A DNA stretch of 45,523 bases, from assembly GCA_902806205.1 (NCBI GenBank), contig CADCVR010000094.1, positions 1-45,523 of the forward strand. The letters run 5' to 3'. Shown here piece after piece: positions 3,972 to 15,145 of the stretch. The position numbers were made by a program, and so were the translations under genes. This DNA comes from an uncultured Solirubrobacteraceae bacterium (lineage in GTDB: Bacteria; Actinomycetota; Thermoleophilia; Solirubrobacterales; Solirubrobacteraceae). The notes beneath the pieces are model-generated. The model saw only the letters and a list, made by a program, of their open reading frames with translations, was not told the DNA's origin and did not search any database. Numbering within the stretch: position 1 is the first letter of the stretch; every line of letters begins with the position of its first letter.

Positions 3972-6005
3972 CTAGGGCTGCGCGCCCATCCAGTCCTCGG
4001 TGTAGGCGTCGGTCTTGACGTAGTAGTTGAGCGGGACGAACTTGTGACACGCCGCGCTGTACACCGGCTTGCACGGGTTGAACGGGTCATGGCGGGCGAA
4101 GCGGTCCGGCGTCGGACCCCCGGGATGCCCGGAGCTGCCGGGACCCACGGAGACGTACACGTCGCACCAGTCCGTGCGACGCACCCTGCCCTCGGCGGCG
4201 TTCGTCAGGCCGTCGTGGTCGATGTCGTCCGCGCCGTCGAGGATGCCGTCGCCGTCGGAGTCCGCGTCGACGAAGTCCAGGCCTGTGTACCGCGGACCGG
4301 GGTAGGTCGACTCGACGTACTGCTCCGAGCAGCGGTTGTCCTTGACCCAGGCGGTCCAGTACGCCGGACCGCTCAGCGGACCGCTGACTTCCGAGTAGTT
4401 CGTGGCACCGTCGGCGTCGACGTCCTTGTCGGAGTCGAGGGTGGCGCCGCCGCCCGTCTGCTGGTTGCCGTCGGAGTAGCTCAGCGGCAACGGGGAGCCC
4501 GTGAACTTCCACGCCCGGAACTCGTTGGCCAGCGAGAGTCCGTCGCCGTCGTGGTCGATGCCGGCGTCCGCCTTGTCCAGCCCGTTCGGGTAGGGCCGCT
4601 TCCCCGGGAAGGGCACGCCCGAGCCGTTGAGGTCTCGGGCCGAGAAGAACTCGAAGCCGTCGCCGACCGTGTCGGCGTCGGTGTCCTCCCGGAAGGGGTT
4701 GAGCCCGTATCGCAACTCGACGGCGTCACCGAGCCGGTCGCCGTCGTCGTCGTCGTCGTCGCGGTTCGAGCGGCCGTCGTTGTCGATGTCGTCGTCACCG
4801 ACGAGGCACAGGCGAGCGTCGGTCGACGGCACGCACGGGTTCAGGGGCCGCTGCAGCTTGTCCTGCGGCCCGGCGCCGAGCTCCGTGAGCATCTCGGTGA
4901 GGTTCGCGATGCCGTCGCCGTCCTGGTCGTCGTCGCCGTCGCGCACCGTGTCGCCGTCGGAGTCCGCGTCCAGCCAGCTCGTGCCCTGCACCTTCCTGAC
5001 GTACTCGAGCGGGCCGTAGAGCGGCACGACGTCGACGATCTTGCGCACCGCCTCGAGGGAGATGTACTCCTCGGCGAAGAAGCCGGTGACGTCCGTGATC
5101 ACGGGCAGCGGGCCGACGCCGCCCTCGTCCTGGTTGGGAATCCCGTCGCCGTCGGCGTCGCGCTCGTTGTCGGAGAGAAAGCCGTTGGCGTCGCGGTCGG
5201 CGTACCCGCGCCCGGGGGGCGGCGGGGCCTTGCCGCCCGTGGCCGGGTCGCCGCCGGAGTAGCTCAGCGGCAGCCTGCCGTCCCCGAAGCTCGCCCAGGC
5301 GGCGTACTCGAGCACGTTGGTCAGGCCGTCGCCGTCGGCGTCGACCGCGGCGTCCTTGGGATCGAGCGCGTTCGGGTAGGGACGGCGAAGCGGCGTCGGC
5401 AGCGCGCGGCCGTTGTAGTCCAGCGCCGACTCGTGCTCCCACCCGTCGCTCATGCCGTCGCCGTCGCTGTCGCGCTTGCACCCGTCGGTCTTCAGCGTCG
5501 CCTCGAGCGTGTCGGCGAGCAGGTCGTTGTCGTCGTCGGCATCCTTGACGTTGGGCACCAGGTCGCCGTCGCAGTCGGCGGGCTTGACCGGGGCGATCAG
5601 GGCTGCCGGGCCGATGACGGGCGAGGCCTTCACGGCGGTGAAGCGGCGACCGAAGCGGCCCGCGAGCACGCGGACGCGGAAGCGGGTGGCGACGGGCCTG
5701 CCGGCCTTCTGGCTCAGCGAGGCGAGCATCTTGGCCGGGATCCTCACGCGGATGGTGGTCCGGGTGGCCTTGCCGGCCTTGACGAAGACCGCGCGGCCGC
5801 CGTCGCGCTTGAAGACCACGGTGTTGCGGCCCGTGCCCGAGCGGAAGCTCTTGCCGCGAAGGGTGAGCGTGTCACCCACGCCGAGCCTCATCGGCGAGAC
5901 CTTGGTGATCGACGGATAGCTCGGCCTGGCTGCCGCGGCCCCGGCCGGCAGGGCCAGGACCGGGAAGACGACGAGGAGGAGGAGCACGCGTGGGAGTCGG
6001 GTCAT
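3972..6005 (-). CDS. Secreted thrombospondin type 3-like calcium-binding protein
   Basis: 677 residues. A Sec signal peptide occupies about residues 1-26 (hydrophobic LLLLVVFPVLALP, AxA site). Residues 30-135 form a beta-rich IPT/TIG-like domain (SPMRLGVGDTLTLRG start). From about 144 on there are many Asp-rich loops of the DxDGDG type (DCDGDLVPN, DSDGDGMSD, DADGDGLTN, DHDGDGLSL, DADSDGDG), typical of TSP3/EF-hand-like Ca2+ sites. A roughly 80-residue module appears twice, near 178-260 and 448-528, each with RPYPN-L-D, an EYAAW/EFRAW element and LPLSYS-G. Probably an extracellular or cell-surface structural protein. It lies between cpaB and the tad motor genes on the same strand, so a pilus or adhesion role is possible but unproven. 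Confidence 0.85.
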   Translation of the reverse strand: MTRLPRVLLLLVVFPVLALPAGAAAARPSYPSITKVSPMRLGVGDTLTLRGKSFRSGTGRNTVVFKRDGGRAVFVKAGKATRTTIRVRIPAKMLASLSQKAGRPVATRFRVRVLAGRFGRRFTAVKASPVIGPAALIAPVKPADCDGDLVPNVKDADDDNDLLADTLEATLKTDGCKRDSDGDGMSDGWEHESALDYNGRALPTPLRRPYPNALDPKDAAVDADGDGLTNVLEYAAWASFGDGRLPLSYSGGDPATGGKAPPPPGRGYADRDANGFLSDNERDADGDGIPNQDEGGVGPLPVITDVTGFFAEEYISLEAVRKIVDVVPLYGPLEYVRKVQGTSWLDADSDGDTVRDGDDDQDGDGIANLTEMLTELGAGPQDKLQRPLNPCVPSTDARLCLVGDDDIDNDGRSNRDDDDDDGDRLGDAVELRYGLNPFREDTDADTVGDGFEFFSARDLNGSGVPFPGKRPYPNGLDKADAGIDHDGDGLSLANEFRAWKFTGSPLPLSYSDGNQQTGGGATLDSDKDVDADGATNYSEVSGPLSGPAYWTAWVKDNRCSEQYVESTYPGPRYTGLDFVDADSDGDGILDGADDIDHDGLTNAAEGRVRRTDWCDVYVSVGPGSSGHPGGPTPDRFARHDPFNPCKPVYSAACHKFVPLNYYVKTDAYTEDWMGAQP

Positions 6006-8566: not shown

Positions 8567-9031
8567 ATGCACACCGAGAAACGCGGCAACTACGACTCCG
8601 GCGAGGACTTCGTCCTCGAGTACGGCGAGCTCCGGTTCACGTTCAACGAACGTGACTTCGCCGAGCGCTGCGAGCAGGCCGCGCTGAAGCTCGGCTTCGT
8701 CGTCGAGCGCTTGGACGAGTGGGAGGTCGAGGACCTCGTCAACCTGGCGGTCAACGGCGAGATCCAGGACCCGGCCTCCGCGCTCGGTGAGCACGTCAAC
8801 GACTGCTGGCCCGAGCTGGTCGGGCCGAGCGACCGCAGCCTCGTGCACTGGCTGCGTCGCCTGGTCTTCCGCTCGGCTTGGCTCGACCAGCGCGTCAAGG
8901 AGGGCGAGCTCGACATCGCCTTCGACGCCGTCGGGCAGAGCTTCACCTACGTGCAGACGGAGCGCGGCGGCGAGCCCGTCGAGCTCGCGCCCGAGCCCTC
9001 CTGGGGCCGCGTGGCCTACGCGCCGCGCTGA
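8567..9031 (+). CDS. Conserved-looking hypothetical protein, 154 aa
   Basis: 154 residues, acidic, no signal peptide or membrane segment. Not recognised. It starts with MHTEKRGNYDSGEDFV, has a Glu/Asp-rich central helix region (FVVERLDEWEVEDLVNLA) and an aromatic stretch (DRSLVHWLRRLVFRSAWL), so a soluble alpha/beta protein is likely. Codon use matches the neighbouring host genes, which supports real coding. The start at 8567 sits directly after a terminator-like hairpin with no Shine-Dalgarno sequence, so it may be translated from a leaderless or processed RNA or be controlled by attenuation. Its stop abuts the rho-like stop (TGA/TCA back to back, 0 bp between). Confidence 0.75.
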   Translation: MHTEKRGNYDSGEDFVLEYGELRFTFNERDFAERCEQAALKLGFVVERLDEWEVEDLVNLAVNGEIQDPASALGEHVNDCWPELVGPSDRSLVHWLRRLVFRSAWLDQRVKEGELDIAFDAVGQSFTYVQTERGGEPVELAPEPSWGRVAYAPR

Positions 9032-10405
9032 TCAGACCAGCGCGTCGGCGCGCGCTGAGGCGATCGCCTCGGCGCCGGCCGCGCCGACCAGCAGCTCGGG
9101 GCGCAGCGTCCCCGAGCCGACCAGGTCGAGCGCCGGCAGGCGCCCCGTCGAGGTGAGCGTCGCGTCCAGGGAGATGACGGTCGTCTCGCCGCCGAGCGCG
9201 TCGGGGGCGGTCGCGATGACCGTCAGCGACCCGCCGTCGACGATCGCCCGCGCGGCCGCCAGGGCGCGGCGGGCGACCGGGGCGGCGACCGCGGCCAGCG
9301 AGTCGATCAGGACGACCGCGTGGCCGCCGCGCGCGGCGACGCGCTTGGCGGTGTCGATCGCCCGCTCGACGGCCTGGCCCTGCGCTTCGGGGCTGGCGGC
9401 GAGCCCCAGCGCGGCGACGGGCGCGATGCCCTCCGGCGCCTCGAGCAGCTCCTCGGGGCGCACACCGACGTAGGCGAGCGACACCTCGAGGCCGTCCAGG
9501 GTGGCCAGGGCGCCCGCGAGGCGCTTGAGTGCCTCGGTCTTGCCGGAGCGCGCGCCGCCCGTGATCGTCACCCGGGAACCGCGGCCGATCGGGGTCAGCC
9601 ACTCGATCGCCTTCAGGGTCGGATCCTCGGAGCCGAGCGCGAAGCGCTCCGTCGGGAAGGCGCAGGCCAGCTCGTCCCACGGGGTGCCCTCGGCGACCTC
9701 GTCGGCCGGACGGTCGTTGATCGTGTCGATGCGGATGAGCGACGGGTAGCGCTCCGAGCGGCGCGGCGCGCGTACCGGGCCGGCGATGCGGTCGCCCGAG
9801 ACCAAGTCGCAGCGCCGCACCTGGGCCGCCGAGATGTAGGCGTCGTCGTCGGAGGGCTCCGGCGGGGACACGCGCAGGAAGCCGGAGCCGTTGCCGAGCA
9901 GATCGACGACGCCGGTGACGACGGCGCCGTCCTCCTCTGCGTCGTCGCGGCCGCCGCGCTCTTCGCGGCCCCCGCGCTCCTCACGACCGCTGCGCTCCTC
10001 GCGGCCGCCGCGCTCTTCCGCGACCGCGCCCCCGCGGCTCCGGCCGCCGCGGGAGCGGCGGGGGCGGGCGGGCCGCTCGCCGTCGACGGCGTCGGGGTCG
10101 TCGTCGGGGGTGTCGTCCGCGATGGGTGCGCCCGCCCCTCCCTCGGCCTCGTCCGGGTCTGCGTTGCGCGTCCGTGAGCGCCCGCCGCGACGGCGGGTGC
10201 GCGGCTTGGGTGCGTCTTCGTCGGTGATGCCCTCCTCGAGGACCTCCTCCTCCGGCGGCGCTCCGCCGGGCTGTGCCTCGAGGACCGCTTGGACGAGGTC
10301 GGCCTTGCGCAGGCGGCGGTAGCCGTCGACGCCGAGCTCGGCGGCAAGGACGTGGAGGTCGGCCAACGGGGAGCCCTCGAGGGAGGAGCGGGTGAGGACG
10401 GACAT
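9032..10405 (-). CDS. rho: Divergent Rho-family protein (probable loss of canonical ATPase chemistry)
   Basis: 457 residues. Domains: Rho_N-like helical start (about 1-45, LADLHVLAAELGVDGYRRLR), a disordered acidic/RGG linker (46-160) with four EERGGR-type repeats, a cold-shock-like RNA-binding domain (about 162-230, GVVDLLGNGSGFLRVSP) and a RecA-like core from about 265. Walker A GGARSGKT (283-290) and the Walker B Asp (VVLIDS, D368) are kept. The family DERPEE motif reads VGVRPEE, so V315 replaces the catalytic Glu (E. coli E211). SGTR reads SGTL, so L434 replaces the arginine finger (R366). The Q-loop segment is missing and the R-loop and C-terminal helices are shortened. ATG start with AAAGG upstream. 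Membership of the Rho family is clear; activity as a terminator is doubtful. Confidence 0.85.
   Translation of the reverse strand: MSVLTRSSLEGSPLADLHVLAAELGVDGYRRLRKADLVQAVLEAQPGGAPPEEEVLEEGITDEDAPKPRTRRRGGRSRTRNADPDEAEGGAGAPIADDTPDDDPDAVDGERPARPRRSRGGRSRGGAVAEERGGREERSGREERGGREERGGRDDAEEDGAVVTGVVDLLGNGSGFLRVSPPEPSDDDAYISAAQVRRCDLVSGDRIAGPVRAPRRSERYPSLIRIDTINDRPADEVAEGTPWDELACAFPTERFALGSEDPTLKAIEWLTPIGRGSRVTITGGARSGKTEALKRLAGALATLDGLEVSLAYVGVRPEELLEAPEGIAPVAALGLAASPEAQGQAVERAIDTAKRVAARGGHAVVLIDSLAAVAAPVARRALAAARAIVDGGSLTVIATAPDALGGETTVISLDATLTSTGRLPALDLVGSGTLRPELLVGAAGAEAIASARADALV
9947..10018 (-). repeat. Four 18-bp in-frame repeats in the rho-like gene
   Basis: Residues 130-153 are four copies of a six-residue unit (EERGGR, with one EERSGR). 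RGG-rich linkers of this sort occur in actinobacterial Rho proteins and can bind RNA. The number of units may vary between strains. Confidence 0.8.
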
Positions 10406-13399: not shown

Positions 13400-15145
13400 T
13401 CAGTCCGGCACGACGCCCTCGTGAGCGGCCTCGACGAGGAACGCCGCGGCCTCGGCCCCCGTCCGGGCGACGTCCCAGCCGAGCTCGCCGGCCATCGCGG
13501 CCGCCACCCGCCGCGCGGCCACTCCGTCGGGGGCGGCGACGTCCCGCGCCGCCGTCAACCCCAGGCGGGTGCGGCGCAGCAGCGCGTCGCCGACCGTCCG
13601 TGCCTGTTCGTGGCGGGCGGCGTAGACGACCTCGGCCAGCAGGTCCGGCGGACGCGCGTGGGCCCGGTCGGAAGCGACGACGGGCTGCGCGAGCTCCCCG
13701 CGCTCCGCGGCGATACGCAGCACCTCGTGCGCGAGATGGCCGTAGCGGCCCGCGAGCTGCGCGTAGGCCGCGTCCGGGATGCCTTCGATGCGTGGCAGCT
13801 GCTCGACGCCGACGGACTGGCCCAGCGGGATCTCGTGCGTGCGGCACGGCGCGTCGCGCGCTTCTCGCTCGACGAGGCGGTCCACGGTCATCTTGGCCAT
13901 CCGCCGCCACGTCGTCAGCTTGCCGCCCGTGATGGTGATCATCCCGCTCGAGGTCTCGTAGAGCTCGGCCTTGCGCGAGATGTCCACGGACTTCTTCGGG
14001 TCGCCCGTCGAGATCAGCGGCCGCACGCCCGCGAAGGCGCCCGCGAGGTCGCTCGCCCGCAACGAGGTCCGGAAGTACGCGTTCGTCGCCTCGAGCAGGT
14101 AGGTGATGTCCTCGGGCTGCGGCGCGACGTGGTCGAGCGCGTGCGGGTCCTCGCTCGGCTCCACCTCGTTGTCGGTCGTGCCGATGAGCGTGCCGCCGAG
14201 CCAGGGCAGCGCGAAGATCGTCCGGCCGCCGCGCGCCGGCACGATCGCCCCCGAGACCAGCGGCAGCTGATCGTGGCGCAGCGTGAGGTGCGTGCCGCGC
14301 GAGGGCCTGATGATCGGCACCTCGGCCTCGTCGCGCAGCTCGTCGGGCCGCAGGCGATCGGCCCACACGCCCGTCGCGTTGACCACGTTGTGCGCGCGGA
14401 TCGCGAACGTGTCACCCGACATGGTGTCGGTGACCTGGACGCCGCGCGAGCGCCCGGCGGTGTCGAGCAGGTCGGTCACCTCCAGGCCGTTGCAGCAGAC
14501 CGCGCCGAAGCGCTCGGCCTCTTGCAGGACGGTGAGCACGAGGCGCGCATCGTCGGTCTGGCAGTCGTAGAAGAGATAGCCCGAGGTCGGATTGCGGCTC
14601 GCGAGCGCCGGAAGGCGCTCGACGACCTCCTCGCCCGTGATGACGCGGTGGCGGTCCGGGGCCCAGTCGGCCAGCCCGTCGCCGTCCGTGTCGGCGACCG
14701 CGAGCGCTCCGTGCTCCTCCTTGACCGCCGTGCCGCCGCCCCGGCCGGGCCGGCGCGAACGGAGCCTGTCGACCGACATGACGTCGTAGAGGTTCAGCCC
14801 GACCCCGGTCAGGCGATCGGGGCGCTGACCCTCGAACGCGGCGAAGACGAGCGGCAGCGGCTTGACGAGGTGCGGCGCGAGCTTGACGTTGATCTGGCGC
14901 TCCAGCAACGCCTCGCGGACCAGGCCGAGGTCGAAGTTCTGCAGGTAGCGCAGGCCGCCGTGGACGAGCTTGGAGGAGCGGCTCGAGGTGCCCGAGGCAT
15001 AGTCGCTGCGCTCGACCAGCGCGACGGAGTAGCCCCGCGTCGCCGCGTCCAGCGCGACCCCGGCGCCGGTGATGCCCCCGCCGACGACGACGACGTCGAA
15101 GGTCTCCGCCGCCAGGGCGGTGATGGCGTCCGAGCGGGTGATCAC
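13400..15145 (-). CDS. glpD: Glycerol-3-phosphate dehydrogenase (FAD-dependent)
   Basis: 581 residues. Oxidises sn-glycerol 3-phosphate to dihydroxyacetone phosphate and passes electrons to the quinone pool at the membrane. The N-terminal FAD Rossmann motif VVVVGGGITGAGVALDAA is at about 18-35, followed by the family signature RSSKLVHGGLRYL near 56-68. The segments LPWLGGTLIGTTDNE and SDLAGAFAGVRPL and the C-terminal GlpD helical domain are also present. Length is normal. GTG start at 15145; a TAGAAT box lies 10 nt upstream within the shared CTCATCTAG motif. No glpF or glpK in view. Confidence 0.95.
   Translation of the reverse strand: MITRSDAITALAAETFDVVVVGGGITGAGVALDAATRGYSVALVERSDYASGTSSRSSKLVHGGLRYLQNFDLGLVREALLERQINVKLAPHLVKPLPLVFAAFEGQRPDRLTGVGLNLYDVMSVDRLRSRRPGRGGGTAVKEEHGALAVADTDGDGLADWAPDRHRVITGEEVVERLPALASRNPTSGYLFYDCQTDDARLVLTVLQEAERFGAVCCNGLEVTDLLDTAGRSRGVQVTDTMSGDTFAIRAHNVVNATGVWADRLRPDELRDEAEVPIIRPSRGTHLTLRHDQLPLVSGAIVPARGGRTIFALPWLGGTLIGTTDNEVEPSEDPHALDHVAPQPEDITYLLEATNAYFRTSLRASDLAGAFAGVRPLISTGDPKKSVDISRKAELYETSSGMITITGGKLTTWRRMAKMTVDRLVEREARDAPCRTHEIPLGQSVGVEQLPRIEGIPDAAYAQLAGRYGHLAHEVLRIAAERGELAQPVVASDRAHARPPDLLAEVVYAARHEQARTVGDALLRRTRLGLTAARDVAAPDGVAARRVAAAMAGELGWDVARTGAEAAAFLVEAAHEGVVPD

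What the first reader, a model, noticed from the sequence alone, without database searches (positions are those of the whole stretch)
9032..10405. Rho-family protein that has lost catalytic Glu, arginine finger and RNA-translocation loops
The RecA core aligns clearly with Rho (PIGRGSRVTITGG..SGKT, VVLIDS, DGGSLTVIATA, LPALDLVGSGT). DERPEE reads VGVRPEE, so the residue equivalent to E. coli E211 is V315. SGTR reads SGTL, so the arginine finger R366 is L434. About 25 residues containing the Q-loop are absent, the R-loop region is shortened and the C-terminal helices end early. Walker A Lys/Thr and the RNA-binding domain remain. This suggests a nucleotide-binding, RNA-binding hexamer or subunit without normal translocase activity. 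It could be a Rho modulator, an RNA chaperone, or the only Rho working by a different chemistry.
Basis: partly seen in the sequence, partly recalled or inferred. Interest (0 to 1): 0.7.

Follow-up and report, generated by a model that had tools for sequence, protein, structure and literature searches.

The report
Rho without a motor in Solirubrobacterales
An order of soil bacteria appears to keep, as its only copy of the transcription-stopping protein Rho, a version that has lost the parts needed to burn ATP and pull on RNA but still has its RNA-gripping part, so it offers a natural test of what Rho can do without its motor.

Summary
The protein has an intact Rho_N domain and RNA-binding OB domain, and a RecA core that models as Rho. 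It lacks the catalytic Glu (E211→V315), the Arg finger (R366→L434), the trans Arg R353, the Q-loop, the R-loop and the C-terminal helices. It is the only Rho in its genome. None of 63 genomes of its order, nor 12 named Solirubrobacteraceae genomes, has a canonical Rho. Nearly all carry this altered protein at the same conserved locus. Loss is stepwise: family f2 lost the loops and trans arginines but kept the Glu; f1, f3 and f4 also lost the Glu. Single lineages went further (OB domain lost, or RecA domain lost). Other families in the class have no Rho, and still others are canonical. The motor-dead core remains under purifying selection, and primary RNA-site residues are conserved. Best explanation: a Rho-derived RNA-binding factor that cannot translocate. 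It cannot modulate a canonical Rho, because there is none. Whether it still forms rings, binds ATP, touches RNA polymerase or terminates transcription is untested. An independent, partial decay was seen in another actinobacterial family.

The parts
9032..10405 (-). motor-dead Rho-family gene (457 aa)
   Evidence: only Rho in the genome
10271..10381 (-). Rho_N domain (residues 9-45)
   Evidence: Pfam PF07498 37.5 bits over cut-off 24.9
9926..10267 (-). disordered Arg/Gly/acid-rich linker (residues 47-160)
   Evidence: pLDDT mostly under 50; low conservation
9707..9916 (-). OB fold with primary RNA-binding site (residues 164-233)
   Evidence: Pfam PF07497 71.8 bits; PBS residues kept
9035..9622 (-). 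RecA-like core (residues 262-457)
   Evidence: AF2 pLDDT over 90; PDB Rho matches
9536..9559 (-). P-loop GGARSGKT (residues 283-290), Walker A Lys/Thr kept
9449..9466 (-). GVRPEE (residues 314-319), catalytic Glu replaced by V315, Arg valve R316 kept
9272..9289 (-). site of Q-loop deletion (26 E. coli residues reduced to 5)
9185..9208 (-). R-loop replaced by short family-specific GGET turn
9104..9106 (-). L434, Arg finger position
8567..9031 (+). convergent conserved neighbour 'gene X' (154 aa, no known family)
   Evidence: 3' neighbour of rho throughout the order; no Pfam or NCBIfam
13400..15145 (-). glycerol-3-phosphate dehydrogenase-like gene, conserved upstream landmark

Best explanation
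This is the vertically inherited rho of an order that matches GTDB Solirubrobacterales (class Thermoleophilia), converted in place from an RNA translocase into a non-translocating RNA-binding factor. Shown by sequence: the catalytic Glu, the trans arginines, and both loops that hold RNA in the central channel are gone, while the OB primary RNA-binding site, Rho_N domain and folded RecA core are kept under purifying selection. Inferred: it binds C/U-rich nascent RNA at the primary site, cannot hydrolyse ATP at a useful rate or pull RNA through a ring, and acts as an RNA-binding or scaffold factor on transcripts. In f1, where Walker A survives, ATP may still be bound as a structural ligand. Which RNA process it serves (RNA chaperoning, protection or silencing of nascent RNA, or docking on RNA polymerase) is not settled.
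For: Catalytic Glu, Arg finger, Q-loop and R-loop are absent in 36/36 f1 and 7/7 f3 sequences, against 32/32 canonical intact; R353 is also lost in all but two f1 rows. PBS Y80 35/36, E108 35/36, R88 36/36, R102 36/36, K115 to R 36/36 in f1. Model pLDDT over 90 in OB and RecA; best PDB matches all Rho, VIA Z 28.6, rmsd 7.5 over 301 residues. dN/dS in the RecA core 0.03-0.07 in the closest f1 pairs, 0.2-0.7 in others. Derived residues fixed, e.g. D210 to G in 36/36 f1 and 7/7 f3. No canonical Rho in the order; one OB domain in most genomes. Experiment on M. tuberculosis Rho: E386A abolishes ATP hydrolysis, helicase and termination but keeps oligomer, ATP and RNA binding (PMC4499133). Mini-Rho of G159 keeps Rho_N and OB only, with PBS residues.
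Against: Three f2 genomes (G171, G175, G181) kept the RecA remnant but lost the OB domain, and f4 lost PBS residues, so RNA binding at the OB is not retained everywhere. Some f1 pairs have dN/dS of 0.6-0.7 in the core, compatible with partly relaxed constraint. No binding, expression or phenotype data were available. F62 to S and F89 to C alter the PBS edge.
Confidence: 0.72

Rival explanations
1. It still terminates transcription without a motor: it docks on the elongation complex through its N-terminal parts and PBS and inactivates RNA polymerase allosterically (the EC-dependent route).
For: Extended PBS residues, which are main contacts to NusA/NusG-modified complexes in E. coli (PMC11018626), and Rho_N are conserved. 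NusG is present. It is the only Rho, and classical U-tract terminators are scarce in f1 genomes.
Against: In M. tuberculosis Rho the equivalent Glu to Ala mutant does not terminate efficiently (PMC4499133). A Rho-less family (G007) is equally poor in U-tract terminators, so scarcity proves nothing. Connector residue R128 is lost.
Confidence: 0.15
2. It is a slowly decaying relic with little function; other families of the class have already lost it.
For: Related families f5, f7, f10 and f11 have no Rho. Lineages in f2 lost whole domains. One 98%-complete f1 genome (G510) has no OB domain hit.
Against: Open frames in all 36 f1 loci across 16 genera, low dN/dS in close pairs, fixed derived residues, and retention in 155 of 183 genomes of the order although misses are mostly drafts.
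Confidence: 0.1
3. It still hydrolyses ATP and translocates by a different chemistry.
For: Walker A, Walker B Asp and Arg valve R212 are kept in f1.
Against: No conserved substitute Glu or Arg (the Glu after the Walker Thr is present in only 23/36). Both RNA-gripping loops are gone. f3 lost the Walker Lys.
Confidence: 0.03
4. It modulates a separate canonical Rho.
For: None found.
Against: No canonical Rho in the own genome or in any of 63 order genomes and 12 named genomes.
Confidence: 0.01

Closest known systems
Canonical transcription termination factor Rho (E. coli b3783; TIGR00767)
   Same: Domain order Rho_N, OB fold, RecA core; PBS residues; Walker A/B; Arg valve; fold
   Different: No catalytic Glu, Arg finger, R353, Q-loop, R-loop or C-terminal helices; 154 bits against cut-off 509
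M. tuberculosis and other actinobacterial Rho
   Same: Long hydrophilic N-terminal insert, phylum
   Different: M. tuberculosis Rho keeps every catalytic residue and is a real motor (PMC4499133, PMC8828861)
Engineered Glu to Ala Rho mutants (E211A, E386A)
   Same: Same catalytic position lost; RNA and ATP binding expected to remain
   Different: Natural, fixed in three families of an order, and combined with loss of both RNA-channel loops and the trans arginines
Short-form Rho paralog Rho2 (NF041509)
   Same: Rho-family variant
   Different: 115 bits against cut-off 628; this is not a paralog beside a normal Rho

Membership tests
Rho superfamily (homology) | Rho_N and Rho_RNA_bind domains over Pfam cut-offs | tested here: met
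   PF07498 37.5 bits, PF07497 71.8 bits
Rho superfamily (homology) | Fold of OB plus RecA core like Rho | tested here: met
   VIA Z 28.6, rmsd 7.5 over 301 residues to 5jji_B; Foldseek E 5e-25
Transcription termination factor Rho (functional equivalog TIGR00767) | Score over the curated equivalog cut-off | tested here: not met
   154 bits against 509.45
Transcription termination factor Rho (functional equivalog TIGR00767) | Catalytic Glu and Arg finger | tested here: not met
   V315 and L434
Transcription termination factor Rho (functional equivalog TIGR00767) | Q-loop and R-loop secondary RNA-binding site | tested here: not met
   both deleted
Transcription termination factor Rho (functional equivalog TIGR00767) | Primary RNA-binding site residues | tested here: met
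   F64, R66, Y80, E108, Y110, R88 kept; F62 is S
Transcription termination factor Rho (functional equivalog TIGR00767) | Hexameric ring | not testable with these tools
   only monomer models possible
Transcription termination factor Rho (functional equivalog TIGR00767) | RNA-dependent ATPase, translocation and termination | not testable with these tools
   needs biochemistry

The most novel reading that the evidence does not exclude
A whole bacterial order uses a motor-free Rho that still silences or terminates transcription, which would show in nature that termination by Rho need not involve translocation.
Probability: 0.15. Interest if true: 0.95.

Novelty: new variant of a known kind. Interest (0 to 1): 0.74.

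Why it matters
Rho is described as highly conserved or absent; an order-wide, motor-dead but selected Rho as the only Rho is a third state, and none of the papers searched here describes it (the main survey of Rho distribution, D'Heygere 2013, is not held). It separates Rho's RNA-binding and possible RNA polymerase-docking roles from its motor, making the translocation-versus-allosteric question testable with natural proteins, and gives a graded series from motor to no motor to no gene. It also warns that annotation as 'Rho' in these genomes may be functionally wrong.

Tried and rejected
Second canonical rho in the genome: none. G159 first looked like a pseudogene with stops; re-reading showed a clean 167-aa frame ending after the OB fold. 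G183 looked Rho-less, but its contig ends inside gene X. Intrinsic-terminator count as a test of lost Rho termination: confounded by GC, and the Rho-less G007 is as poor, so uninformative. Coding-strand purine bias (test idea from PMC13323073): no difference between canonical, dead and absent. Plasmid tblastn: only distant Rho matches. Tree: the root is arbitrary and branches of f4 are long, so only the separation of the order from canonical, E. coli and f36 Rho (100/97) is used. The pdb_via list after Rho is F1-ATPase, the expected RecA relatives; no inference drawn. Gene X: no structural match at E<=0.001, left open.

Full report
WHAT IS THERE. The finding lies on the minus strand: ORF 9032..10405, 457 aa. 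Pfam gives Rho_N (37.5 bits) and Rho_RNA_bind (71.8 bits), both over cut-off. The ATPase core is only weakly seen (27.9 bits, under cut-off). The NCBI equivalog model for Rho scores 154 bits against a cut-off of 509. Closest solved proteins are all Rho.

THE LOST PARTS. I aligned the window protein with E. coli Rho and Rho from about 90 loci of the same class. In 32 of 32 canonical sequences of the class the catalytic motor residues are present. In the window family (f1, 36 sequences) D210-E211 reads G-V (G-A in 7, G-T in 1), R366 is L, I or M, and R353 is mostly G (two sequences have R in that column). E. coli 273-298 with the Q-loop goes from 26 to 5 residues, and 317-335 with the R-loop from 19 to 6. 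Roles of these residues are from PMC8828861 and PMC1950744. Kept: Walker A Lys (33/36), Walker B Asp (36/36), Arg valve R212 (36/36), and PBS residues Y80 and E108 (35/36), R66 (29 R, 7 K), R88 and R102 (36/36).

THE ONLY RHO. The own genome (3.38 Mb, 108 contigs, 97% complete) has no other Rho; further profile hits score 31 bits or less and cover only the nucleotide-binding core, as expected for F1-type ATPases. In a 200-genome sample of the class, 38 genomes have a Rho over cut-off, all in families f6, f8, f9 and f12. None of the 63 sampled genomes of the window's order (f1-f4) does. f5, f7, f10 and f11 have no Rho hit beyond generic ATPases. Named relatives include Solirubrobacter, Conexibacter, Patulibacter and Paraconexibacter, among them the complete chromosomes of Paraconexibacter antarcticus and Conexibacter sp. 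S30A1. Twelve such genomes contain only the altered Rho. Across the phylum, 253 of 296 genomes have a Rho over cut-off.

STEPWISE LOSS AT ONE LOCUS. The gene sits between a glycerol-3-phosphate dehydrogenase-like gene and a convergent, very conserved 154-aa gene (gene X). That arrangement recurs in f1, f2, f3 and f4, so these are vertical descendants of one rho. f2 lost the Q-loop and the trans arginines, with Walker Lys to Arg, but kept E211 in 10 of 11. f1, f3 and f4 also lost E211. f3 lost the Walker Lys. f4 lost the PBS as well. Three f2 genomes have deleted the OB domain and read DPSPEE. One f2 genome (G159) has deleted the RecA domain and keeps a clean 167-aa Rho_N plus OB protein. A tree separates the order from canonical, E. 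coli and f36 Rho with 100/97 support.

SELECTION. Pairwise NG86 dN/dS in the RecA core is 0.03 (L047/L051), 0.07 (L049/L158), 0.24 (L165/L168), 0.29 (L043/L056) and up to 0.69 (L046/L115). Canonical pairs of similar divergence are mostly 0.00-0.07, with one family (f6) at 0.11-0.23. So the core is constrained, less tightly than a working motor. Nineteen positions are at least 90% fixed in f1 for a state different from a canonical state that is itself at least 90% fixed, including D210G, Q172S and the new GGET turn. An OB domain is found in 155 of 183 genomes of the order, one copy each with one exception among the listed rows. The remaining genomes are mostly drafts or belong to f2 genera that lost the domain.

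STRUCTURE. The AlphaFold2 model (48-sequence alignment) has pLDDT over 90 for most of Rho_N, OB and RecA; the linker is disordered. The nearest solved chains are Rho: Foldseek E about 1e-25, VIA Z 28.6, rmsd 7.5 over 301 residues. The high rmsd may reflect the hinge between the OB and RecA domains (inference). Ring formation was not tested.

MECHANISM. In M. tuberculosis Rho the single change E386A (the E211 position) abolishes ATP hydrolysis, helicase and termination but leaves oligomerisation, ATP binding and RNA binding (PMC4499133). The present protein has that position changed plus loss of the RNA channel loops and trans arginines. Hence I infer no translocation, with RNA binding at the OB retained. 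The most likely role is an RNA-binding or scaffolding factor; the step from RNA binding to cell function is not shown. A motor-free terminator through the elongation-complex route (described in PMC11018626) remains open at about 0.15.

NOT INFORMATIVE. U-tract terminators are scarce in f1 (2.0 and 0.5 per 100 kb) but also in Rho-less G007 (0), and correlate with GC. Coding-strand purine content does not differ clearly among the groups.

CONVERGENCE. Family f36 of another part of the phylum shows an independent, graded Rho decay (P-loop broken; E211 to A or C in two of five), with no canonical Rho in those genomes.

PRIOR KNOWLEDGE. Searches of the open library found no description of a motor-dead Rho or of Rho in Thermoleophilia. 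The 2013 survey of Rho distribution is not held, so priority cannot be claimed firmly.

Noticed in passing
window 8567-9031 (+): Gene X: 154 aa, 58-87% identical across the order, convergent 3' neighbour of rho, also present in several other families of the class without rho beside it; no Pfam or NCBIfam family, AF2 pLDDT 86, no PDB match at E<=0.001.
   Followed up: partly
L192, L193, L195, L197, L198 (family f36): Independent graded decay of Rho in another actinobacterial family with no canonical Rho in the genome.
   Followed up: partly
L089 around 5016-5522 (G159): Mini-Rho of Rho_N plus OB domain only, RecA domain deleted, beside gene X.
   Followed up: yes
L175 2476-3321, L176 4646-5302, L177 4464-5231: Rho relatives that lost the OB domain and read DPSPEE at the catalytic motif.
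   Followed up: partly
families f5, f7, f10, f11 of the class: No Rho of any kind detected in these actinobacterial families; f9 is mixed (G012 and G030 lack it).
   Followed up: partly
L202-L221: Two high-GC f1 genomes have almost no classical U-tract terminators and no motor-competent Rho; how they end transcripts is unexplained.
   Followed up: partly
L123, L174, L166: Contigs labelled Bifidobacterium breve or Eremiobacterota carry the Solirubrobacterales-type rho; probably mislabelled or contaminated MAGs.
   Followed up: no
G018:C3:511221-512279: A canonical-type rho in family f9 is interrupted by two TGA codons in the assembly.
   Followed up: no
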